From: Gemmatimonadaceae bacterium
GTDB lineage: Bacteria > Gemmatimonadota > Gemmatimonadetes > Gemmatimonadales > Gemmatimonadaceae
NCBI GenBank assembly: GCA_020851035.1
Contig: JADZDM010000002.1
Coordinates: 253,995-317,994 of the forward strand
Reading direction: 5' to 3'
DNA: 64,000 nt
The notes under the pieces are model-generated. The model had not been told where the DNA came from and ran no database searches. It saw nothing but the letters and a program-made list of their open reading frames with translations. The number at the start of each line of letters is the position of its first letter. Position 1 is the first letter of the stretch. A program made the position numbers and the translations under genes. Shown here one piece after another: positions 2,276-50,670 of the stretch.

Positions 2276-3841
2276 CTACCAGTCGGTCGGCGCGTAGTCC
2301 TTGAGGAACTGGCCCCACACGTGCCGGCCGGTGTTCACGCCGTCGATGATCGGGTCGACGATGCGCGCCGCGCCATCCACGATGTCCAGCGGGGGATGGA
2401 AGCGGTGCTCGGCGGTCTTCCGGGCCGCGATCTCCGCCGGATCCTCGTCGGTCACCCAGCCGGTGTCCACGCTGTTCATGTGGATGCCGTCCTTCTCGTA
2501 GTCGGCGGCCGAGGTGCGCGTCATCATGTTGAGCGCCGCCTTGGCCATGTTGGTGTGCGGATGGCGCGTGGTCTTGAAGCGCCGGTAGAACTGCCCCTCC
2601 ACCGCCGAGACGTTCACCACGTGCTTCTCGCGGCCGGGGGTGCGCAGCATCAGCGGCTTGAGGCGCGCGTTGAGCAGGAACGGCGCGACGGCGTTCACGA
2701 GCTGCACCTCGAGCAGCTCCACCGACGGCACCTCGTCCATCTGCAGGCGCCAGGAGTTCCGGTCGCGCAGGTCCACCTGCTGCAGGTCCTGGTCCAGCCG
2801 GCCGACCGGGAAGAGCGCCTGCTGCGCCGCATGTTCCTCGTCCAGCAGCTTCACCTGCGACAGCTGCGCGGCGTGCGTGAGGCCCACCGCGTCGCGCAGC
2901 CCCGGCTCGATGGCCGGCACGCCCGACGGGCCCTCGGGCAGCATGTGGTATCCGCGCACACCTTCGTACGCACCGAGCAGGCGGCGCACCGGCTCTGGCA
3001 TCGCCTGCAGCGCCGCCGTCTCGACATCCATCATGTGCTGGTAGAAGTCGGGGGGCCGGCGCACGGTCTGGCAGGCGTTGTTCACGATGAAGTCGAGCCG
3101 GTCGCGCGTGGCGCAGAGGTGCGCGCAGAACGCCTCCACACTCGGCGTGTGACGGAGGTCCAGCCCGAAGATCTCGAGCCGGTGGCCCCACTCCCCGAAG
3201 TCCGGCTCGGCGGCGTAGCGGGAGGCCGAGTCCCGCGGGAACCGGGTGGTGACGATGAGGTGCGCGCCGGCGCGCAGCAGCTTGATGCCGGCCTGGTAGC
3301 CGATCTTGACGCGGCCGCCGGTGAGCAGCGCCACCCGGCCGCGCAGGTCGGCCGTCTCGGTGCGCTTGGCGAAGTTGAACGCGGCGCAGGCGGGGCAGAG
3401 CTGGTCGTAGAAGTGATGGAGCTCGGTGTAGTCGCGCTTGCAGACGTAGCAGTTGAGCGTCTCGTGCGCGTGGAGCAGGTCGGGCTCCTCCTCCACCGTC
3501 TCCTGCACGAAGCCGGCGGGGGCGAAGAGGCGCGGGGTGACGAACACCTCGTCGCGCCGCCCCTTTCGGATCCCGGTGTCCTGGAGCACCGACTCCGACC
3601 GCTGGGTGCGCTCGGCCTTCCGCTGGGAGCGCGTTGCCTTCACCAGCCGGCGCCGGGCGAGGGCGTCGGGCCGGGAGACCTCGCCGGCGGCATGCAACAG
3701 CCGGGTCCGGTCCGCGGATGGCAGCTGCGCCAGCACCGACCGGTCGGCGGCGATCGCCTCGAGAAGGTCGGCCACCTCGCGGGCGCGGGCAGCGAAGTCG
3801 GGAGGAACGGCGGCGCCGGTCGGGGTCGGGACATCAGGCAT
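2276..3841 (-). CDS. SDR-fold protein with zinc-ribbon insertion
   Basis: A 521-residue protein. Residues 165-500 form a short-chain-dehydrogenase Rossmann domain: a TGGRVKIG nucleotide-binding loop at 174-181, NNA at 254-256 and VNVSAVEG with Ser412. It departs from classical SDRs in three ways. The N-terminal extension carries C131-x2-C134 and C149-x2-C152 with HH between them, which looks like a zinc ribbon. About 100 extra residues separate NNA from the serine strand. The position normally held by the catalytic Tyr of YxxxK is Thr430, four residues before Lys434. It probably binds NAD(P), but whether it is an active dehydrogenase is unclear. No substrate can be assigned. Confidence 0.8.
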   Translation of the reverse strand: MPDVPTPTGAAVPPDFAARAREVADLLEAIAADRSVLAQLPSADRTRLLHAAGEVSRPDALARRRLVKATRSQRKAERTQRSESVLQDTGIRKGRRDEVFVTPRLFAPAGFVQETVEEEPDLLHAHETLNCYVCKRDYTELHHFYDQLCPACAAFNFAKRTETADLRGRVALLTGGRVKIGYQAGIKLLRAGAHLIVTTRFPRDSASRYAAEPDFGEWGHRLEIFGLDLRHTPSVEAFCAHLCATRDRLDFIVNNACQTVRRPPDFYQHMMDVETAALQAMPEPVRRLLGAYEGVRGYHMLPEGPSGVPAIEPGLRDAVGLTHAAQLSQVKLLDEEHAAQQALFPVGRLDQDLQQVDLRDRNSWRLQMDEVPSVELLEVQLVNAVAPFLLNARLKPLMLRTPGREKHVVNVSAVEGQFYRRFKTTRHPHTNMAKAALNMMTRTSAADYEKDGIHMNSVDTGWVTDEDPAEIAARKTAEHRFHPPLDIVDGAARIVDPIIDGVNTGRHVWGQFLKDYAPTDW

Positions 3842-35100: not shown

Positions 35101-35131
35101 CTGCGACTCCAACTGAAACTGCAACAGCATC

Positions 35132-35378
35132 CACGCAAGGCGCAAAGGGGCGCAAAGGGGCGCGAAGGACGCAAAGGACTGCTTTCTTGGGAACAGCGCG
35201 CGCATCGAATGCTCCGCGCGTCGGAGAAGGGTTCGCAAGCCGCGATGCGTGAGCGCGGACACGGAGCTCCGCGATACACCGCTGTTCACCTCGACTTCGA
35301 TGTGCCTCGCATTCGGCGACCTTGGCCGCACGCGCCGAACTCTTTGCGTCCTTCGCGTCCTTTGCGCCTTTGCGTCAA
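35132..35378. repeat. CGCAAAG-bounded inverted-repeat element, copy 1
   Basis: The 35101-35414 gap has no gene but holds a palindromic element. The left arm (about 35132-35178) is a run of degenerate CGCAAAGG/CGCGAAGG units. The right arm (about 35339-35378) is its inverted counterpart (CTTTGCGTCCTTCGCGTCC type). The arms can pair over about 40 bp, making a long cruciform. The centre differs from the other two copies and lacks their GAGGGGAACTGC core palindrome, but shares short pieces. The element lies between convergent genes. Confidence 0.8.
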
Positions 35379-35414
35379 GGCCGTTGCAATTCGATGGCGC
35401 GACGATCGCAGCGA

Positions 35415-44268: not shown

Positions 44269-45975
44269 GTGCACTGGATCAACTGGGTCATCGTCGGCAT
44301 CTACCTCGTGGTGGTGGTATTCGACGGGCTGCGCCGGACGCGGGGCACCACCAACATCGAAGGCTACTTCCTGGCGAACCGCAGCCTGCCCTGGTGGGCG
44401 GTGGGACTGTCGGTCATGGCGACGCAGCTCTCGGCCGTGACGCTGATCGGCACCACCGGCCAGGGGGCCACCGACGGGCTGCGCTTCGTGCAGTTCTACT
44501 TCGGGCTGCCGATCGCGATGGTGGTGCTGGGCGTGACGCTGGTGCCGTTCCTGCACGGCGCGAAGGTCTACACCGCGTACGAGTACCTCGAGCGCCGGTT
44601 CGACGCGAAGACGCGCTCGCTCACGAGCTTCCTGTTCCTGCTCTCCCGCGGCATGTCGTGCGGCACGATCATCGCGGCACCGAGCGTGGTGCTGTCATCG
44701 ATCTTCGGGTGGGACATCGGCTGGTGCGTGGCGCTGATCGGCGTGCCGACGGTGATCTACACGGTGCTCGGCGGCGTGCAGGCGGTGGCGTGGGCGGACG
44801 TGAAGCAGATGTTCGTGATCCTCGGTGCGATGGCGGCGATAGTGGTGGTGCTGATCGTGCGGATGCCGGTGCCGCTGGACGATGCGCTGCACATCGCGGG
44901 CGCCGCCGGCCGCCTGCAGGTGTTCGACTTCTCGTTCGACCTGTCGAAGACGTACACGTTCTGGTCGGGGGTGCTGGGCGGCACCTTCCTGATGCTCTCG
45001 TACTTCGGCACCGACCAGAGCCAGGTCCAGCGGTACCTCGCCGCCCGGAGCGTGGACGAGGCGCGCAGCTCGCTGCTGATGAGCGCGTACTGGAAGATCC
45101 CGCTGCAGGCGATGATCCTGCTGACCGGCGTGCTGGTGTTCCTGTTCTACCTCTTCACGCCGGCGCCGATGCTCTACAACCCGCGCCAGAGCGCGCAGGT
45201 GCAGGCGAAGGAGCCGGCGGTGTATGCGGCGCTCGAGCGGCAGTACGCCGGTGCGATCGCCACCCGCCAGGCGGCGGCACGGGCGGCCGTGAGCGTCCGG
45301 AACACGGGTGGATCGGCCGACCAGGTCCGCGCCTCGCTGGACGCCTTCCGCGCGTCGCAGGCCGGCGTGGACTCGGTGCGCACGAATGCGCTCAGCACGG
45401 CGGCGCGCATCAGCGGCGAGTCGTCACGCGACGTGAACTTCATCATGCCGCGCTTCGTGCTCGACAACCTGCCGCTGGGCTTCGCGGGTGTCTTCCTCGC
45501 GGCGGTGCTGGCGGCCGCGATGTCGAGCATCGCGGCGGAGCTCAACTCGCTGTCCACGGCCACCGTGGTGGACTTCTACCAGCGCTGGTTCCGCAGGTCA
45601 GCCAGCGACGCGCACTACCTGCAGGTGTCGAAGATCTCGACCGCGATCTGGGGCGTGTTCGCCTGCGTGGTCGCGACCTACGCGGCCACCCTTGGCTCGC
45701 TGATCGAGGTGGTGAACCGGTTCGGCAGCTTCTTCTATGGCTCGATCCTCGGGATCTTCCTGCTGGCGATGATCCCGCGGGTGCGGGCACGCGGGGCGTT
45801 CATCGGGCTGCTCTGCGGGATGGTCGCCGTCGGCTCGGTGGCGAAGTGGGTGCCGAGCGTGAGTTTCCTCTGGCACAACCTCATCGGTGCCGCCGCGGTC
45901 GTGCTGATCGGGTATGTGCTGAGCCTGGGCGAGCCGGCATCGTCGCGTCCTGTCGACGGGCGGAGCATCACGTAG
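44269..45975 (+). CDS. Sodium:solute symporter (SSS) family transporter
   Basis: A 568-residue protein from a GTG start. It begins INWVIVGIYLVVVVFDGL, and GYFLANRSLPWWAVGLSVMA is the hallmark second-helix segment of the family. About 13-14 helices follow. Between two helices (roughly residues 300-400) there is a hydrophilic stretch of about 100 residues rich in Ala, Gln and Arg, longer than in most family members. It couples Na+ entry to uptake of a sugar, amino acid or similar solute. The alpha-L-fucosidase encoded downstream on the opposite strand hints at a sugar, but this is weak. It ends at repeat copy 2. Confidence 0.92.
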   Translation: MHWINWVIVGIYLVVVVFDGLRRTRGTTNIEGYFLANRSLPWWAVGLSVMATQLSAVTLIGTTGQGATDGLRFVQFYFGLPIAMVVLGVTLVPFLHGAKVYTAYEYLERRFDAKTRSLTSFLFLLSRGMSCGTIIAAPSVVLSSIFGWDIGWCVALIGVPTVIYTVLGGVQAVAWADVKQMFVILGAMAAIVVVLIVRMPVPLDDALHIAGAAGRLQVFDFSFDLSKTYTFWSGVLGGTFLMLSYFGTDQSQVQRYLAARSVDEARSSLLMSAYWKIPLQAMILLTGVLVFLFYLFTPAPMLYNPRQSAQVQAKEPAVYAALERQYAGAIATRQAAARAAVSVRNTGGSADQVRASLDAFRASQAGVDSVRTNALSTAARISGESSRDVNFIMPRFVLDNLPLGFAGVFLAAVLAAAMSSIAAELNSLSTATVVDFYQRWFRRSASDAHYLQVSKISTAIWGVFACVVATYAATLGSLIEVVNRFGSFFYGSILGIFLLAMIPRVRARGAFIGLLCGMVAVGSVAKWVPSVSFLWHNLIGAAAVVLIGYVLSLGEPASSRPVDGRSIT

Positions 45976-45994
45976 GGTCGGCAACGTCAACGGC

Positions 45995-46214
45995 GTGACG
46001 CAAAGACGCCCAGGGCGCGAAGGACGCGAAGGACGCAAAGGACTGCGGCCCTGCGCAGCCCGCGATGCCCGGCCCACACGACTGGCGAAGCACTCGAGGG
46101 GAACTGCAACAGCCACCGCAGTTCCCCTCAGGTTCGTTCCTTTTCGTGCGACAGGAGCGTCGCCGCACGCAGCGACCTCCTTGCGCCCTTCGCGCGCTTC
46201 GCGTCTTGGCGTTT
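45995..46214. repeat. CGCAAAG-bounded inverted-repeat element, copy 2
   Basis: The left arm (45995-46044) is a series of GACGCAAAG/GGACGCGAAGG units and the right arm (about 46175-46214) is its inverse. In the centre a perfect 12-bp palindrome (GAGGGGAACTGC at 46096-46107, GCAGTTCCCCTC at 46118-46129) encloses a 10-nt loop. The whole element is homologous to copy 3 in reverse orientation; the core differs at one of 34 positions. Its right edge coincides with the stop codon of the fucosidase gene. Confidence 0.85.
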
Positions 46215-47572
46215 CAGCAGTTCCGACCGCCGACGAAGCACCGACCTCCCTGTCCATCGAAGTCGAGCGCGACGACTGGCACCAGCGTTCCGGGCCCACG
46301 TTCAGGGAGCGTGACCGTGACGCCTGCTGGTGTGACAGCAGAGCTGAGACGCAGCGACGGATCCTCGAGCAGGACGGCGCGGCGTGGTGCGGTGCGCAGG
46401 CCCGGCAGCGTGAGCGCCCCGCCCTTCCACTCGTCGATGAAGAGGTGAAGGCGGTTGCCCTTCGCCGTGATGCGGACGGGGGCGTCCGCGAACGGTGAGG
46501 CGCGCGTGCCGTGGATGGCGCCGGGATTGCGCCGCATCCAGGCCGCGATCCCCTCCAGCCCGTCGATGCTCGGCTGCGGCACGCGGCCGTCGCCGTCGGG
46601 GCCGACGTTGAGCAGCAGGTTGCCCCCCTTGGACGCCGTCTCGACCAGCAGCTTCACCAGCGTTGGCACGCTCTTCCACTTCGGGTCGTCCTTCGCGTAG
46701 CCCCAGTTGTCGTTCATGGTCATGCACGACTCCCAGTCCACGCCGGGCATCCCTTTCTCGGGCACCATCAGCTCGGGTGTCGTGTAGTCACCGGCCCGGC
46801 GATAGGTGCTGCCAGGCGGGAGGTCGGTGGGGACGCCGACGTCGATGCGGTCGTTGATGACGACACCGGGCGCGAAGCGCCGGCAGAACGCCTCCAGCTC
46901 CACCGCCAGCGCGTGGGTCCAGGTGCTCTCCCACTGGCCGTCGAACCAGAGCACCGACACGTCCCCGTACTGCGTGAGCAGCTCGCGGAGTTGCGCCTGC
47001 ATGAAGGTGAGGTAGCGCGTGAAGTCGGCACCGGTGGCGTCACGCTGCTCCCAGTCACGCCGCGGGAGGTAGTCGGGGTGGTACCAGTCCATGATCGAGT
47101 AGTACCACCCGAGCCGCAGGCCGTGGCGCCGGCAGGCGGTGGCCACGTCGCGTGCGATGTCGCGGCGGTACGGCGTGGCCATCACGTCGTAGGCGCTCAC
47201 CGTCGAGTCGAAGAGTGAGAACCCCTCGTGGTGCTTGGTCGTGAAGACGACGTACTTCTGCCCTGCCGCCTTCGCCAGGCGCACCAGGGCGTCGGCGTCG
47301 AAGGCGGTGGGGTTGAACTGCGGGGCGAGGGCGATGTACTCCTCGTGCGGGATCTTCGCGTTGTTGCGCATCCACTCGTGCGAGCCGGTCATGCGCCCCT
47401 TCCATTCGCCACCGGGCCGGGAATAGAGGCCCAGGTGGATGAACATCCCGAACCGCGCCTCCCGCCACCACGCCATCCGGTCCGCCGCCGGTGCGTCCAG
47501 GCGCAGCCGGTCCCCGACCACCAGCGCGGCGGCGGCGGCACTCATTCTCGTCGCGAACTCTCTGCGGTCCAT
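46214..47572 (-). CDS. Alpha-L-fucosidase, glycoside hydrolase family 29
   Basis: A 452-residue protein with a twin-arginine type signal (DRREFATRMSAAAAALVVG), so probably exported. The GH29 barrel opens with RFGMFIHLGLYS, contains TTKHHEGFSLFDS (substrate-binding HH) and has the nucleophile Asp211 in SVLWFDGQW. It removes alpha-linked L-fucose from glycans. A C-terminal beta-sandwich covers about 340-440. The last residues are encoded at the edge of repeat copy 2, and copy 3 lies just upstream of its start in opposite orientation, so the gene is bracketed by the element. Confidence 0.93.
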   Translation of the reverse strand: MDRREFATRMSAAAAALVVGDRLRLDAPAADRMAWWREARFGMFIHLGLYSRPGGEWKGRMTGSHEWMRNNAKIPHEEYIALAPQFNPTAFDADALVRLAKAAGQKYVVFTTKHHEGFSLFDSTVSAYDVMATPYRRDIARDVATACRRHGLRLGWYYSIMDWYHPDYLPRRDWEQRDATGADFTRYLTFMQAQLRELLTQYGDVSVLWFDGQWESTWTHALAVELEAFCRRFAPGVVINDRIDVGVPTDLPPGSTYRRAGDYTTPELMVPEKGMPGVDWESCMTMNDNWGYAKDDPKWKSVPTLVKLLVETASKGGNLLLNVGPDGDGRVPQPSIDGLEGIAAWMRRNPGAIHGTRASPFADAPVRITAKGNRLHLFIDEWKGGALTLPGLRTAPRRAVLLEDPSLRLSSAVTPAGVTVTLPERGPGTLVPVVALDFDGQGGRCFVGGRNC

Positions 47573-47619
47573 CTGCGCTCCTCGCTTCGTTCAGGCGCAA
47601 TCTGAGATCTGGAACAGCA

Positions 47620-47831
47620 TGACGCAAAGACGCAAAGAGCGCCAAGAGCGCAAAGCGGTCGGTGCGTTCGGCGACGTTCACCTCGCGCGAGAACGAAGGT
47701 ACCTGAGGGGAACTGCGGTGGCGGTTGCAGTTCCCCTCGATTGTTTCGGCCGTTGTGCGGGCCGAGCTTCACGGGCTACGCAGGGTCGCACGTCTTTGCG
47801 TCCTTCGTGCCCGTTGCGCCTTTGCGTCATG
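47620..47831. repeat. CGCAAAG-bounded inverted-repeat element, copy 3
   Basis: The left arm is about 47620-47655 (GACGCAAAGACGCAAAG) and the right arm about 47790-47831 (TCTTTGCGTCC to CTTTGCGTCATG). The core palindrome GAGGGGAACTGC (47705-47716) and GCAGTTCCCCTC (47727-47738) is identical to that of copy 2, and flanking sequence on both sides aligns when one copy is reversed. It fills the 293-bp gap between the fucosidase start and the Lrp-type regulator stop. Confidence 0.85.
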
Positions 47832-47865
47832 CCGTTGCTCGTCCGATGCCGGGGACGAAGCGACG

Positions 47866-48288
47866 CTAGATCTTGTGCGTCGACAGCAGCAGTGAGGTTT
47901 CGGAGTTCGCGATCCCCTTGATCGTCCGGATGCTGCGTAGCGCGGCGTCGAAGGTCTCGAGCGTGTCGGTGCCGAGTTCCGCGACGATGTCCCAGCGTCC
48001 GTTGGTCGTGTGCAGGGCGCGGACCTCGGGGTAGCCGCGCAGCTCCTTGAGGATCGCGTCCGAGCGGTCTCCGTCGACGGCGATCATCATCACGGCCCGC
48101 ACGCGGTGCGCAGCGGCTTCGGAGGTGGTGCGGACGGTGAAGCCGAGCAGCACGCGGTGCTCGACCAGGCGGTCGATGCGGTTCTGGACCGTGGCGCGGG
48201 AGACGCCGAGCAGCACCGCGAGCTGGGCGACCGAGAGCCGCGCGTTGTCGCGGAGGAGCGAGATCAGGCGGTGGTCGAGCGAGTCCAT
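47866..48288 (-). CDS. Lrp/AsnC family transcriptional regulator
   Basis: I chose the ATG at 48288 (140 residues), since DSLDHRLISLLRDNARLS is the standard Lrp opening; an upstream ATG at 48339 would lie only a few bases after the predicted transcription start. The N-terminal helix-turn-helix is at about residues 18-42 (QLAVLLGVSRATVQNRIDRL). The C-terminal RAM domain (about 65-140) binds a small ligand, usually an amino acid. It is divergent from arginase across 148 bp that contain a palindrome, so it probably controls the arginase/ornithine aminotransferase genes and itself. Confidence 0.92.
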   Translation of the reverse strand: MDSLDHRLISLLRDNARLSVAQLAVLLGVSRATVQNRIDRLVEHRVLLGFTVRTTSEAAAHRVRAVMMIAVDGDRSDAILKELRGYPEVRALHTTNGRWDIVAELGTDTLETFDAALRSIRTIKGIANSETSLLLSTHKI

Positions 48289-48350
48289 GTCTTGGCGGAC
48301 AGCGGTGTCAGGGAAGGCGGAATCGACGAAAATGATCATTCCGCAATGCG

Positions 48351-48381
48351 GTAGTATACATTCTGGCATAATACTACACAA
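48351..48381 (-). promoter_or_regulatory. Regulator promoter and overlapping operator-like palindrome
   Basis: On the minus strand, TTGTGT (48381-48376) and TATACT (48358-48353) are spaced by exactly 17 nt and read toward the regulator gene. A perfect 7-bp inverted repeat (GTAGTAT at 48351-48357, ATACTAC at 48371-48377, 13-nt spacer) overlaps both boxes, as an autoregulatory operator would. On the plus strand the same spacer holds TGGCATAAT, a possible extended -10 for arginase. The surrounding 48330-48390 stretch is markedly AT-rich for this genome. Confidence 0.6.
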
Positions 48382-48436
48382 ATCTGCCAACCTTGTGTAC
48401 TTGTTGCCTACAGTGCCAACCGCGAGTCTTCCCGGC

Positions 48437-49411
48437 ATGACGTATCTCGCCGGAAACGACACGCACCGCACCGCCCTGCTCGAGCGCGCGGCCCCTCGCG
48501 ATACCGCACCGCTGACGGTCCAGCTCGTCGGCGTCCCGATGGACCTGGGCGCCAGCCGCCGCGGCGTGGACATGGGGCCCTCGGCCATGCGGCTCTCGAC
48601 CCTCACGCCGCTCCTCGAGCGCCTCGGGCTCCAGGTGCACGACGCCGGCAACGTGCCGGTGCCGGACCGCAGCGCCATCGGCAGCACCCTCCACGCCCGG
48701 CTCGAGGCCATCCGGATCGTGTGCGCGGAGCTGGCCGGTCGCACCGCCGCCGCCGTCCGGGCCGGCGTGCAGCCGATCGTGATCGGCGGCGACCACTCGC
48801 TGGCCGCTGGCTCCGTCGCCGGCACCGCGACGGCGCTGGCCGAGCGTGGCGCGCGAACCGGACTGATCTGGCTGGATGCCCACGCCGACCTCAACACCCC
48901 CGCCTCCAGCCTCACCGGCAACATCCACGGCATGCCCGTGGCGCACCTGCTCGGCATGGGGGACGCGCGCATGTCCCGGCTGGCCTCGGTCTTCCCGGCC
49001 ATCCGCCCCGAGCACCTCGTCTACGTTGGCCTGCGCGACGTCGATGAGGCCGAGAAGACGATGATCCGCGAGCTCGGCCTGCACGCCTTCACCATGCGCG
49101 ACATCGATGAGCGCGGCCTGCGTTCGGTGATGGAGGAGGCGGTCACGATCGCCACCAGCGGCACCGGCGGCGTGCACGTCTCCTGCGACGCCGACTGGAT
49201 CGACCCCGGTGAGGCCCCTGGCGTCGGCACGCCCGTGCGCGGCGGCGCCACCCTGCGCGAGGCCCACCTCGCCATGGAGATCATCCATGACTCGGGCGCC
49301 ATGGTCGCCATGGACCTCGTGGAGATCAACCCCATTCTCGACCGGCAGAACCACACCGCCGAACTGGCCGCGGAGCTCATCGCGAGCGCCTTCGGCCGCC
49401 GCACCCTCTGA
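48437..49411 (+). CDS. rocF: Arginase
   Basis: A 324-residue ureohydrolase from the ATG at 48437. The binuclear manganese ligands are visible: His in GGDHSLA, Asp/His/Asp in WLDAHADLNTP, and two Asp in SCDADWIDP (usually SxDxDxxDP). APGVGTPVRGG and DLVEINP complete the signature. It hydrolyses arginine to ornithine and urea in the cytoplasm. rocD lies 44 bp downstream to convert the ornithine, and a divergent Lrp-type regulator lies upstream, so this is an arginine-catabolic operon. No urease or arginine transporter is in the window. Confidence 0.95.
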   Translation: MTYLAGNDTHRTALLERAAPRDTAPLTVQLVGVPMDLGASRRGVDMGPSAMRLSTLTPLLERLGLQVHDAGNVPVPDRSAIGSTLHARLEAIRIVCAELAGRTAAAVRAGVQPIVIGGDHSLAAGSVAGTATALAERGARTGLIWLDAHADLNTPASSLTGNIHGMPVAHLLGMGDARMSRLASVFPAIRPEHLVYVGLRDVDEAEKTMIRELGLHAFTMRDIDERGLRSVMEEAVTIATSGTGGVHVSCDADWIDPGEAPGVGTPVRGGATLREAHLAMEIIHDSGAMVAMDLVEINPILDRQNHTAELAAELIASAFGRRTL

Positions 49412-49455
49412 ACCACGCCCGATCCACTCCCCTCTCCCCCGACGGAGGCGCTTCC

Positions 49456-50670
49456 ATGTCCGACACCGCCACGATGCTCTCGGCAACCGACACGTTCATC
49501 GAGCGTGAGGAGGCGTGGGGCGCGCACAACTACCACCCGCTGGATCTCGTCATCGAGTCGGCGCGCGGCGCCTGGGTCACCGATGTTGAGGGCAACCGGT
49601 ACCTCGACTGCCTGAGCGCCTATTCGGCCGTGAACCAGGGGCACTGCCATCCGCGGCTCCTGAAGACCTTCACCGAACAGGCCGCCCGTGTCACGCTCAC
49701 GTCGCGCGCCTTCCGCAACGGGCAACTCGGCGCGTTCTGCGAGGAGCTGGCCACCCTCTGCGGCATGGAAATGGTGCTCCCCATGAACACCGGCGCCGAG
49801 GCCGTCGAGACGGCCATCAAGGCCGCCCGGCGGTGGGGGTACACGACGAAGGCGATCCCCGACGGACAGGCCCGGATCATCGCCTTCGAGAACAACTTCC
49901 ACGGTCGCACCACCACCATCGTCGGCTTCTCGTCGGAGCCGGCCTACCGCGCGCACTTCGGCCCCTTCGCGCCTGGCTTCGTGCTGGTGCCGTTCGGTGA
50001 CATCGAGGCCGTGCGCGCGGCCATGACCGCCGACACCTGCGCCGTGCTGCTGGAGCCCATCCAGTGCGAGGCCGGCGTGCTGCTGCCACCGGACGGCTTC
50101 CTGGCGGCGGTGCGGGAGCTCTGCACCGAGCGGAACGTCCTGATGATCGCCGACGAGATCCAGACCGGTCTCGGTCGCACTGGCCGCATGTTCGCCTGCG
50201 ACCACGATGGCGTGACGCCGGACATGTACATCCTCGGCAAGGCGCTGTCGGGGGGCTTCTATCCCGTCTCGGCCGTGGTGTCGCGTCGCGACGTCCTCGG
50301 CGTGTTCGGCCCCGGCTCCCACGGCAGCACCTTCGGCGGCAACCCGCTCGGCTGTGCCGTGGCCCGGGAGGCGCTGCAGGTGCTGCAGGACGAACAGCTC
50401 GTCGAGCGCTCGGCCGACCTTGGCGCGTGGCTCCTGGCGCAGGTCCGCACGATCGTGGACCCGCGGATCCGTGCCGTGCGCGGGCGCGGCCTGATGGTCG
50501 CGATCGAGCTCGGCGAGCCGGCGCGACCGTTCTGCGAGGCGCTCAAGGCCCGCGGCGTGCTGTGCAAGGAGACCCACGACTTCGTGATCCGACTCTCGCC
50601 GCCGCTGGTCGTCTCCCAGGCTGACCTGGCCTGGGCCGTGGAGCAACTCCGGGCCGTGTTCGGGGACTGA
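49456..50670 (+). CDS. rocD: Ornithine-oxo-acid aminotransferase
   Basis: A 404-residue class III aminotransferase. It has the ornithine aminotransferase opening (AHNYHPLDLVIESARGAWVTD), GAEAVETAIKAARRWGY, DEIQTGLGRTGRMFA and the PLP lysine Lys262 in LGKALSGGFYPVS. It transfers the delta-amino group of ornithine to 2-oxoglutarate, giving glutamate semialdehyde and glutamate. A good GGAGG lies before the ATG. It directly follows arginase, so the two enzymes form the first steps of the arginase pathway. Confidence 0.95.
   Translation: MSDTATMLSATDTFIEREEAWGAHNYHPLDLVIESARGAWVTDVEGNRYLDCLSAYSAVNQGHCHPRLLKTFTEQAARVTLTSRAFRNGQLGAFCEELATLCGMEMVLPMNTGAEAVETAIKAARRWGYTTKAIPDGQARIIAFENNFHGRTTTIVGFSSEPAYRAHFGPFAPGFVLVPFGDIEAVRAAMTADTCAVLLEPIQCEAGVLLPPDGFLAAVRELCTERNVLMIADEIQTGLGRTGRMFACDHDGVTPDMYILGKALSGGFYPVSAVVSRRDVLGVFGPGSHGSTFGGNPLGCAVAREALQVLQDEQLVERSADLGAWLLAQVRTIVDPRIRAVRGRGLMVAIELGEPARPFCEALKARGVLCKETHDFVIRLSPPLVVSQADLAWAVEQLRAVFGD

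What the first reader, a model, noticed from the sequence alone, without database searches (positions are those of the whole stretch)
45995..47831. Alpha-L-fucosidase gene bracketed by inverted copies of the same repeat
Repeat copies 2 and 3 are homologous over their full length only when one is reversed (core 33 of 34 identical), and they enclose exactly one gene. The fucosidase stop codon falls on the inner edge of copy 2. This is the geometry of a composite mobile unit or an invertible segment, and could mark acquisition of the gene or allow inversion by recombination.
Basis: partly seen in the sequence, partly recalled or inferred. Interest (0 to 1): 0.5.

Follow-up and report, generated by a model that had tools for sequence, protein, structure and literature searches.

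The report
Palindromic repeats tied to nuclease genes
The two repeats beside the fucosidase gene are members of a family of hairpin-forming DNA elements that sit just after genes, and their arms resemble the DNA that brackets a widespread, little-studied nuclease gene, which suggests a so far unnoticed kind of mobile element.

Summary
In detail: copies 2 and 3 match end to end only when one is reversed (179 of 225 columns; core 33 of 34), and only the fucosidase lies between. The pair is one of many: at least 43 places hold this palindromic element. Of 37 with both neighbours called, 26 lie between convergent genes, 11 after one gene, 0 between divergent starts. Copies 2 and 3 are each other's closest relatives among 42, which suggests local copying. 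Nothing shows that the gene moved or flips with them; two fucosidase homologues elsewhere lack the arms.

The family leads further. Similar inverted arms bracket PF13366 'GxxExxY' PD-(D/E)XK nuclease genes: 24 of 42 loci, against 0 of 45 control genes and 7 of 522 genes in hairpin-rich stretches, in several phyla. One of this genome's four such genes has arms like these hairpins. Arm-gene-arm units are missing at matching sites in two relatives' records. Best reading: REPIN/MITE-like elements linked to a nuclease. That the nuclease moves them is inferred.

The parts
45989..46223 (.). Palindromic element copy 2: outer arms AACGGCGTGACGCAAAG.../...CTTGGCGTTTCAGCAGTTCC, between convergent SSF and fucosidase genes
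46096..46129 (.). Central hairpin of copy 2 (GAGGGGAACTGC...GCAGTTCCCCTC)
47612..47837 (.). Palindromic element copy 3: GAACAGCATGACGCAAAG.../...CTTTGCGTCATGCCGTTGC, 3' of the Lrp/AsnC gene and upstream of the fucosidase gene
47705..47738 (.). Central hairpin of copy 3
35122..35387 (.). Palindromic element copy 1 (ends approximate): same arms, variant core (GGGAACAGC), between convergent genes
46214..47572 (-). Alpha-L-fucosidase gene (PF01120), the bracketed gene; not taken to be part of the element
44269..45975 (+). Sodium:solute symporter (SSF) gene, convergent neighbour whose 3' end lies next to copy 2
47866..48309 (-). Lrp/AsnC-type regulator gene whose 3' end lies next to copy 3

Best explanation
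Copies 2 and 3 are members of a dispersed, gene-less palindromic element family: arms of (G)RCGCRAAG-type octamers around an inner hairpin, about 140-330 bp, at least 43 places. They accumulate just 3' of genes, above all between convergent genes in this genome; the pair around the fucosidase is most simply one copy and its local offshoot in the next 3' gap. The family belongs to a wider class in which similar inverted arms enclose a single gene, the PF13366/TIGR04256 'GxxExxY' PD-(D/E)XK nuclease. Shown: arm-gene-arm is present or absent as a unit at matching sites; two genomes with one bracketed nuclease hold at least 28 and 15 gene-less hairpins with arms like its own; the two arms of one copy track each other in sequence. 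Inferred: the nuclease acts on the hairpin or cruciform formed by the arms and copies or moves both its own unit and the gene-less hairpins in trans, in the way RAYT transposases are thought to move REPs/REPINs; 3' gaps survive because insertion there harms least, or because the hairpin serves as a two-way 3' end.
For: Family and position: copies; 26 of 37 convergent, 11 tandem, 0 divergent; window background 9 of 47 pairs convergent; binomial 2e-11. Arm coupling: (own arm pairs 0.717, shuffled 0.638 with sd 0.012, 0 of 5000 shuffles; inner 25 nt 1988 of 5000, no effect). Local copying. Nuclease link: inverted-repeat score >= 40 between flanks in 24 of 42 PF13366 loci and 22 of 840 mismatched flank pairs, 0 of 45 control genes and 7 of 522 called genes in stretches of four hairpin-bearing genomes (of 213 short ones, 1) (Fisher 2e-10 against the 45). 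Own genome: 3 of 4 PF13366 genes bracketed; the one at C2:79051 has CGCAAGG arms that score 31.6 on average against 78 hairpin arms (92 control flanks: mean 15.4, maximum 22.3). Co-occurrence: all 19 genomes with the general arm pattern carry PF13366, against 134 of 395 (P 4.9e-10; by genus 1.3e-5). One bracketed gene with many gene-less hairpins: G281 and G260. Empty sites: fabD-[437-bp unit]-fabG in Sphingomonas parapaucimobilis against S. paeninsulae; radA-[472-bp unit] in Bacteroides finegoldii against Parabacteroides distasonis; one gene-less hairpin of G281 missing in G260. Protein: H14, G19, G21, E24, D64, K76 invariant in 25 sequences, E74 nearly; confident model (pLDDT 95.6).
Against: No activity is shown. 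No nuclease gene of this genome carries exactly the hairpins' arms: the nearest has CGCAAGG rather than CGCAAAG arms, two have CGCGGA-type arms, one has none. 18 of 42 PF13366 loci fall below the threshold; of six plasmid or viral examples two show no clear arms and one (Bernardetia) scores 36. G120, with one one-mismatch arm match, has no PF13366. Other genes lie between such arms too (7 of 522; two of six loci with 380-700 nt gaps, and longer gaps without it). At the radA site Phocaeicola massiliensis has a longer unrelated spacer, so the site is not simply empty or full. No target-site duplication was seen at three empty sites; flanks there are only 72-91% alike. Loci are not independent: five of the 24 (L282, L286, L287, L303, L312) share flanking genes, L137 gives the same alignment score and arm spacing as L310 and is probably the same genome, and 21 of 42 come from genomes chosen for arms or as congeners. 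In G281 and G260 the convergent bias is weak (5 of 40 hairpins; 4 divergent), and in G017 two of eight lie inside called genes. Nearest solved folds are weak matches (none at E <= 0.001).
Confidence: 0.6

Rival explanations
1. The hairpins are host-useful 3'-end structures (two-way transcription terminators or mRNA 3' stabilisers) kept by selection. The link to GxxExxY genes is only that both tend to lie in the same kind of gap.
For: Position near stop codons, 26 of 37 convergent and 0 divergent; strong folds; coupled arms; in G017 hairpins of other sequence sit right after the Lrp and SSF stops (read by eye); at two shared sites G281 and G260 carry hairpins of different sequence (read by eye).
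Against: Does not explain arms bracketing PF13366 in 24 of 42 loci against 0 of 45 and 7 of 522 other genes, arm-gene-arm units missing at matching sites, or limitation of the arm pattern to 19 of 395 genomes drawn from the phylum.
Confidence: 0.2
2. Composite transposon: copies 2 and 3 are the ends of a unit that brought in the fucosidase gene.
For: Inverted copies enclose exactly one gene and are mutual best matches among 42 copies; a second gene on C21 is bracketed the same way; the gene is absent from one congener and only distantly matched in the other; SSF and Lrp lie apart in G023, G016 and G017.
Against: Most copies are single elements elsewhere; two homologues without arms in relatives; each copy sits at the 3' end of a different gene as the family does generally; no transposase among the genes scanned; a third bracket joins unrelated copies.
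Confidence: 0.1
3. Invertible segment: recombination between the inverted copies flips the fucosidase gene.
For: Inverted geometry, 80% identity over 225 columns.
Against: Longest exact match 22 nt, short for homologous recombination; no site-specific recombinase among the five neighbouring genes scanned.
Confidence: 0.04
4. REPs/REPINs proper, mobilised by the three Y1/RAYT-type transposases of this genome.
For: Same 3'-proximal and convergent placement as published for REPs (PMC3733652: abstract and sections 6, 15, 16 read); three PF01797 genes present.
Against: The three transposase loci are flanked by other repeats, not by these arms (read by eye); the arms are several times longer than the 8-9 bp stems of CGTC REPs.
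Confidence: 0.06

Closest known systems
REP/REPIN elements with RAYT (TnpA-REP) transposases (PMC3733652, sections read; PMC3116915, listing only)
   Same: Many dispersed palindromes just 3' of genes; a gene-bearing unit plus many gene-less copies; family sequence differs between genomes
   Different: The associated gene is a PD-(D/E)XK nuclease family, not an HUH tyrosine transposase; arms are octamer arrays of about 36 nt or more; REP stem length not met
MITEs (non-autonomous IS derivatives)
   Same: Short, terminal inverted repeats, no gene called inside, many copies, presence/absence at matching sites
   Different: No transposase with these ends was found; no target-site duplication seen; the linked gene is a predicted nuclease
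PD-(D/E)XK homing endonuclease elements (recalled)
   Same: Small unit built on a PD-(D/E)XK nuclease gene
   Different: Sits between genes inside long inverted arms, with gene-less hairpins alongside; no intron or intein was looked for
GxxExxY protein family (PF13366, TIGR04256)
   Same: The bracketed genes score above the curated cut-offs
   Different: One passage was read in each of the three papers that name it or its accession: a cas4 mix-up, a viral gene table, and an algal domain count; none of these passages mentions repeats or mobility

Membership tests
Composite transposon | Two IS-like ends that move an internal segment as one unit | tested here: inconclusive
   The pair is mutually closest and inverted, but homologues in G019 and G012 lack the arms, at other places; no empty sister site was available
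Composite transposon | Transposase in the unit or its ends | tested here: not met
   Only the fucosidase is called between the copies and no gene inside them
Composite transposon | Target-site duplication outside the pair | tested here: not met
   Outer flanks share no evident repeat (printout, read by eye)
Invertible DNA segment | Site-specific recombinase nearby, or long exact inverted homology | tested here: not met
   Longest exact match 22 nt; no recombinase among five neighbouring genes scanned
Invertible DNA segment | Both orientations in a population | not testable with these tools
   No reads held
REP/REPIN-RAYT | Extragenic palindromes near gene 3' ends, in many copies | tested here: met
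REP/REPIN-RAYT | RAYT gene flanked by the same repeat | tested here: not met
   Three PF01797 loci carry other repeats (by eye)
REP/REPIN-RAYT | Short stem-loop (CGTC families: 8-9 bp stem, 4-5 nt loop) | tested here: not met
   Definition; here arms of up to 36 nt lie 68-226 nt apart in 39 of 40 places. GTAG families were not compared in detail
MITE | Terminal inverted repeats, no coding capacity, many copies | tested here: met
   Arms in 39 of 40 places; no gene called inside any of 40
MITE | Ends match a transposase-bearing parent | tested here: inconclusive
   No transposase parent found; arms resemble those around a PF13366 nuclease gene
MITE | Target-site duplication | tested here: inconclusive
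   Not resolved at the empty sites
PF13366 / TIGR04256 GxxExxY | Score above curated cut-off | tested here: met
PD-(D/E)XK nuclease | Catalytic D...ExK residues | tested here: met
   D64 and K76 invariant, E74 in 90% or more of 25 sequences
PD-(D/E)XK nuclease | Core fold | tested here: inconclusive
   Confident model; top matches SSO0001 and lambda exonuclease but none at E <= 0.001
PD-(D/E)XK nuclease | Nuclease activity | not testable with these tools
   Needs protein

The most novel reading that the evidence does not exclude
GxxExxY nucleases and the octamer-armed palindromic repeats seen across many bacterial phyla form one class of mobile element: an inverted-arm unit carrying only a small PD-(D/E)XK nuclease, which also spreads large populations of gene-less hairpins in trans, with the two arms kept alike by templated repair. 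The repeats beside the fucosidase are such hairpins.
Probability: 0.4. Interest if true: 0.85.

Novelty: new variant of a known kind. Interest (0 to 1): 0.6.

Why it matters
Arms of this type occur in genomes of many phyla (120 stretches when the scan stopped at its limit, 80 of them shown with names). Linking them to a named but uncharacterised nuclease family would give both a candidate function, add a REPIN-like system without a classical transposase, and make an old question (how extragenic palindromes spread and why they sit after genes) testable in cultured species such as Sphingomonas parapaucimobilis or Bacteroides finegoldii. For the finding as given, it shows how inverted repeats can come to bracket a gene without carrying it.

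Tried and rejected
Rfam: only a mir-7939 hit below the family's gathering score, about 7 kb away. RAYT origin: rejected after reading the three Y1 loci by eye. The family in 40 relatives by DNA: one weak match, in G002. First genome contigs pattern too strict, 0 hits. Empty-site test for this genome's own hairpins in G001: 20 contigs fetched, one locus with both flanks on one contig but near a contig end, undecided; L058 against five genomes gave no decisive pair. Leads in family f6 read by eye: G219 has the flanks 200 bp apart without arms, G234 has another gene there; gain or loss unclear. Viral contigs: arm pattern in 35 stretches; one GxxExxY relative by profile, none with the G000 protein. 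Phages: no match. Plasmids: six records; the element itself none. PDB by sequence: nothing. PADLOC: weak Cas4 similarity only. Arm strings in papers: none; two unrelated papers with one string. Other literature searches listed no paper linking GxxExxY to repeats by title or abstract start.

One control locus (L025) had a misplaced flank; without it the control is 0 of 45, and placed right it scores 21.

Rows dropped: one search used 42 of 55 PF13366 loci (13 lacked full flanks) and 46 of 47 control candidates; one search used 39 of 40 copies (38 for the outer pieces); contexts use 37 of 40 places (three next to contig ends); one search used 42 of 43 copies.
Full report
WHAT WAS REPORTED. The window is G000:C2:253995-317994 of a 4.97 Mb genome in 34 contigs. 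One relative of the same family, G017, has a contig of the same length as the Gemmatirosa kalamazoonensis plasmid NZ_CP007129.1 with a GxxExxY match at the same place, so I take G017 to be Gemmatirosa.

OBSERVATION. Correct. Copy 2 against reversed copy 3: 179 of 225 columns identical, best 34-column window 33 of 34, longest exact run 22 nt; the direct orientation aligns only in part. The fucosidase (PF01120) is the only gene called between, and its stop codon lies at the edge of copy 2.

WHAT THE REPEATS ARE. A search of the own genome gave 109 matches, which I grouped into 40 repeat places. Most show one architecture: outer AAC(G/A/T)GC, arms of TGACGCAAAGGCGCAAAGGGCGCGAAGGACGCAAAG type, an interior usually with a GGGAACTGC/GCAGTTCCC-like hairpin, and mirrored arms; one (C22) is cut by a contig end and a few are degraded. 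Three more copies came from later stretches, so at least 43; the list is not complete, since the arm pattern with one mismatch matches 89 times and only the first places are printed. The arms of one copy resemble each other more than arms of different copies (0.717 own, 0.638 shuffled, sd 0.012, 0 of 5000; next 10 nt outward also 0 of 5000; positions 11-25 outward 6 of 5000, led by two copies; inner 25 nt 1988 and next 30 nt 3095 of 5000, no effect). Some copies carry the same unusual insertion in both arms (C20:83541, C20:18203, C10:107019). This fits selection for pairing or templated arm-to-arm repair; the data do not tell these apart.

WHERE THEY SIT. Of 40 places, 37 have both neighbours called by a simple codon-based caller written here: 26 between convergent genes, 11 after one gene of a tandem pair, 0 between divergent starts; the window as a whole has 9 convergent pairs of 47 (binomial 2e-11). 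Distances to the nearest stop codon are mostly under 40 bp. The three extra copies: two convergent, one tandem. Copy 2 fills the SSF/fucosidase convergent gap; copy 3 lies at the 3' end of the Lrp/AsnC gene.

THE BRACKET. Three pairs of held copies enclose exactly one gene: the fucosidase pair, C21:469815/471328, and C1:203356/205474. With 43 copies in an assumed 4300 gaps 0.43 are expected and P(>=3) is 0.0085; with 60 copies 0.046; with 80 copies 0.18. The first two pairs are mutual best matches among 42 copies and inverted; the third pair is unlike. Ten pairs within 12 kb score 123.9 on average, random pairs 86.7, 53 of 5000 draws as high. So copies tend to have related neighbours, most simply by local copying into the next 3' gap. 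A composite unit would also give such pairs, but fucosidase homologues in G019 (68%) and G012 (60%) have no such arms, at other places in those genomes; GC and GC3 of the fucosidase are ordinary. In G023, G016 and G017 the SSF and Lrp genes lie far apart, so the local order is not shared with them.

THE WIDER CLASS. A generalised arm (CTYYGCGYCYTYYGCGYCTYYGCGT) occurs in 19 of 395 genomes drawn from the phylum (reversed control 0), in 120 stretches of other genomes when the scan stopped at its limit (80 shown with names, from many phyla), and in 35 viral contig stretches. In these 155 loci arms face inward in 83 pairs and outward in 21, inward gaps mostly 8-250 nt. Of six loci with gaps of 380-700 nt, four (L128 Bacteroidetes, L151 Planctomycetota, L166 Uliginosibacterium, L189 Chromatiales) encode a GxxExxY protein and two (L122, L193) do not; nor do those with larger gaps (PF13366 confirmed for the three tested). 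A profile search found 10 GxxExxY genes in the 155 loci, seven of them within 400 bp of arms.

THE NUCLEASE LINK TESTED. In 55 fetched PF13366 loci of the phylum, 11 are bracketed by this arm type (by eye). Independent of any motif, the best inverted match between 350-bp flanks reaches 40 in 24 of 42 loci with full flanks: 12 of 21 top-scoring loci of the phylum and 12 of 21 from 18 chosen genomes (16 with the arm pattern, two congeners). Mismatched flank pairs reach it in 22 of 840. Controls: 0 of 45 fucosidase, SSF and Lrp-type loci, and 7 of 522 genes called in stretches of G281, G260, G365 and G017 fetched because they hold or adjoin hairpins, 1 of 213 among those under 700 nt. Arms vary between genomes (CGCGGAG, CGCAAAG, CACAGAG, CACGAAG) but keep the octamer-array form. 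Five of the 24 (L282, L286, L287, L303, L312) share flanking genes. All 19 arm-pattern genomes carry PF13366, against 134 of 395 (P 4.9e-10; by genus 10 of 10 against 48 of 138, P 1.3e-5); relatedness and genome size were not modelled. With the stricter arm pattern at one mismatch 7 of 8 genomes carry it.

IN THIS GENOME. There are four PF13366 genes. Three are bracketed: C21:439290 and C21:446826 by CGCGGA-type arms and C2:79051 by CGCAAGG arms. The last scores 31.6 on average against 78 arms of the gene-less hairpins, third of the loci compared; 92 control flanks average 15.4 with maximum 22.3. Its frame is open with the conserved residues. So the hairpins of the window have a gene-bearing relative in the same genome, but not one with identical arms.

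UNITS AND EMPTY SITES. In G281 and G260, each with one PF13366 gene, the arms of that gene match many further places (34 and 38 matches of the whole query, some to flanking genes), and 28 and 15 gene-less inward pairs were seen in the stretches fetched. One G281 hairpin (L411) is missing from the matching G260 site, with 13 bp between the flanking alignments; three other G281 sites, one of them the nuclease unit, are occupied in both; five further hairpins had only one flank matched and stay undecided. At two sites the genomes hold hairpins of different sequence. In named records, a 437-bp arm-gene-arm unit lies between fabD and fabG in Sphingomonas parapaucimobilis and is missing in S. paeninsulae; seven more listed records with both fab flanks have spans of 1402-1419 bp, about 460-480 bp shorter than the matched query. 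A 472-bp unit lies after radA in Bacteroides finegoldii and is missing in Parabacteroides distasonis; Phocaeicola massiliensis has a longer spacer there. Bernardetia has CACAGAG arms (score 36); Treponema (22) and Persicobacter (24) show none.

THE PROTEIN. In 25 aligned members H14, G19, G21, E24, D64, K76, Y92 and N105 are invariant and E74 nearly so, as expected of PD-(D/E)XK. The model is confident (pLDDT 95.6); Foldseek's top matches are SSO0001 (a Cas4 protein, recalled) and lambda exonuclease, none at E <= 0.001. No solved structure by sequence.

COMPARISON WITH WHAT IS KNOWN. REPs sit within about 20 bp of 3' ends and between convergent or tandem genes (PMC3733652 sections 6, 15 and 16 read), much as the hairpins do here. 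But REPs are short and tagged, GTAG REPs are linked to RAYTs, and CGTC REPs lack a known transposase (abstract). The three RAYT-like genes of this genome carry other repeats (by eye). So the elements work like REPINs or MITEs in distribution without being REPs by the tests made. GxxExxY or its accession occurs in three papers of the open library; one passage of each was read and none concerns repeats. The arm strings occur in no relevant paper.

VERDICT. Observation confirmed. The pair is locally related, but carriage or inversion of the fucosidase is not shown. The best reading is gene-less palindromic elements at gene 3' ends, of a class whose arms also enclose GxxExxY nuclease genes. That the nuclease moves them is inference.

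Noticed in passing
G000:C21:435000-450500 (L330): Two GxxExxY genes within 8 kb, each bracketed by a different version of CGCGGA-type arms.
   Followed up: partly
G000:C21:462800-474600 (L058): Three copies within 6 kb that are each other's close relatives; two of them enclose one gene in inverted orientation, like the fucosidase pair.
   Followed up: partly
G000 copies at C5:20802, C5:185821, C5:465620, C17:80802, C20:18203, C21:592620, C5:121, C5:478389: A second hairpin of GAGGCCCCG(A/G)TGCGC.../...CGGGGCCTC type lies inside these elements, looking like a nested element of another family.
   Followed up: no
L066, L067, L068: The three Y1/RAYT-like genes are flanked by their own short repeats (TTCAAGATCTCCGTCCCC; GGACTCTGTCCCCTTTCTGTGCCC; GTGCACTGTCACCGG), unlike the CGCAAAG arms.
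   Followed up: no
L413/L429 and L450/L439 (G281 and G260): At the same intergenic site two relatives carry hairpins of different sequence (CGCGGAG against CACAGAG type), as if one replaced the other.
   Followed up: partly
G000:C1:214938, C5:121, C22:35730: Three copies lie within about 250 bp of a contig end, so the assembly may break at or near these palindromes.
   Followed up: no
L035 end (G000:C1:214950-215159): Tandem array with unit like TTTGCGTTGACGCTGTTGCTCTTGCGGTTGCAGACGGAC next to a copy; runs of GCAACA beside C5:465620 and C22:35730.
   Followed up: no
window 47866-50670: Lrp/AsnC - arginase - aminotransferase order is kept in G023 and G016 (Lrp-arginase in G017), while the SSF gene lies elsewhere there.
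   Followed up: partly
L105 (G017) downstream of SSF: A third kind of hairpin (CATCATCTCCATGGCGTTACCATCA...) follows the SSF stop codon, between convergent genes.
   Followed up: no
L189:4235-4985: A GxxExxY gene split by an inserted stretch inside its arms (Chromatiales).
   Followed up: no
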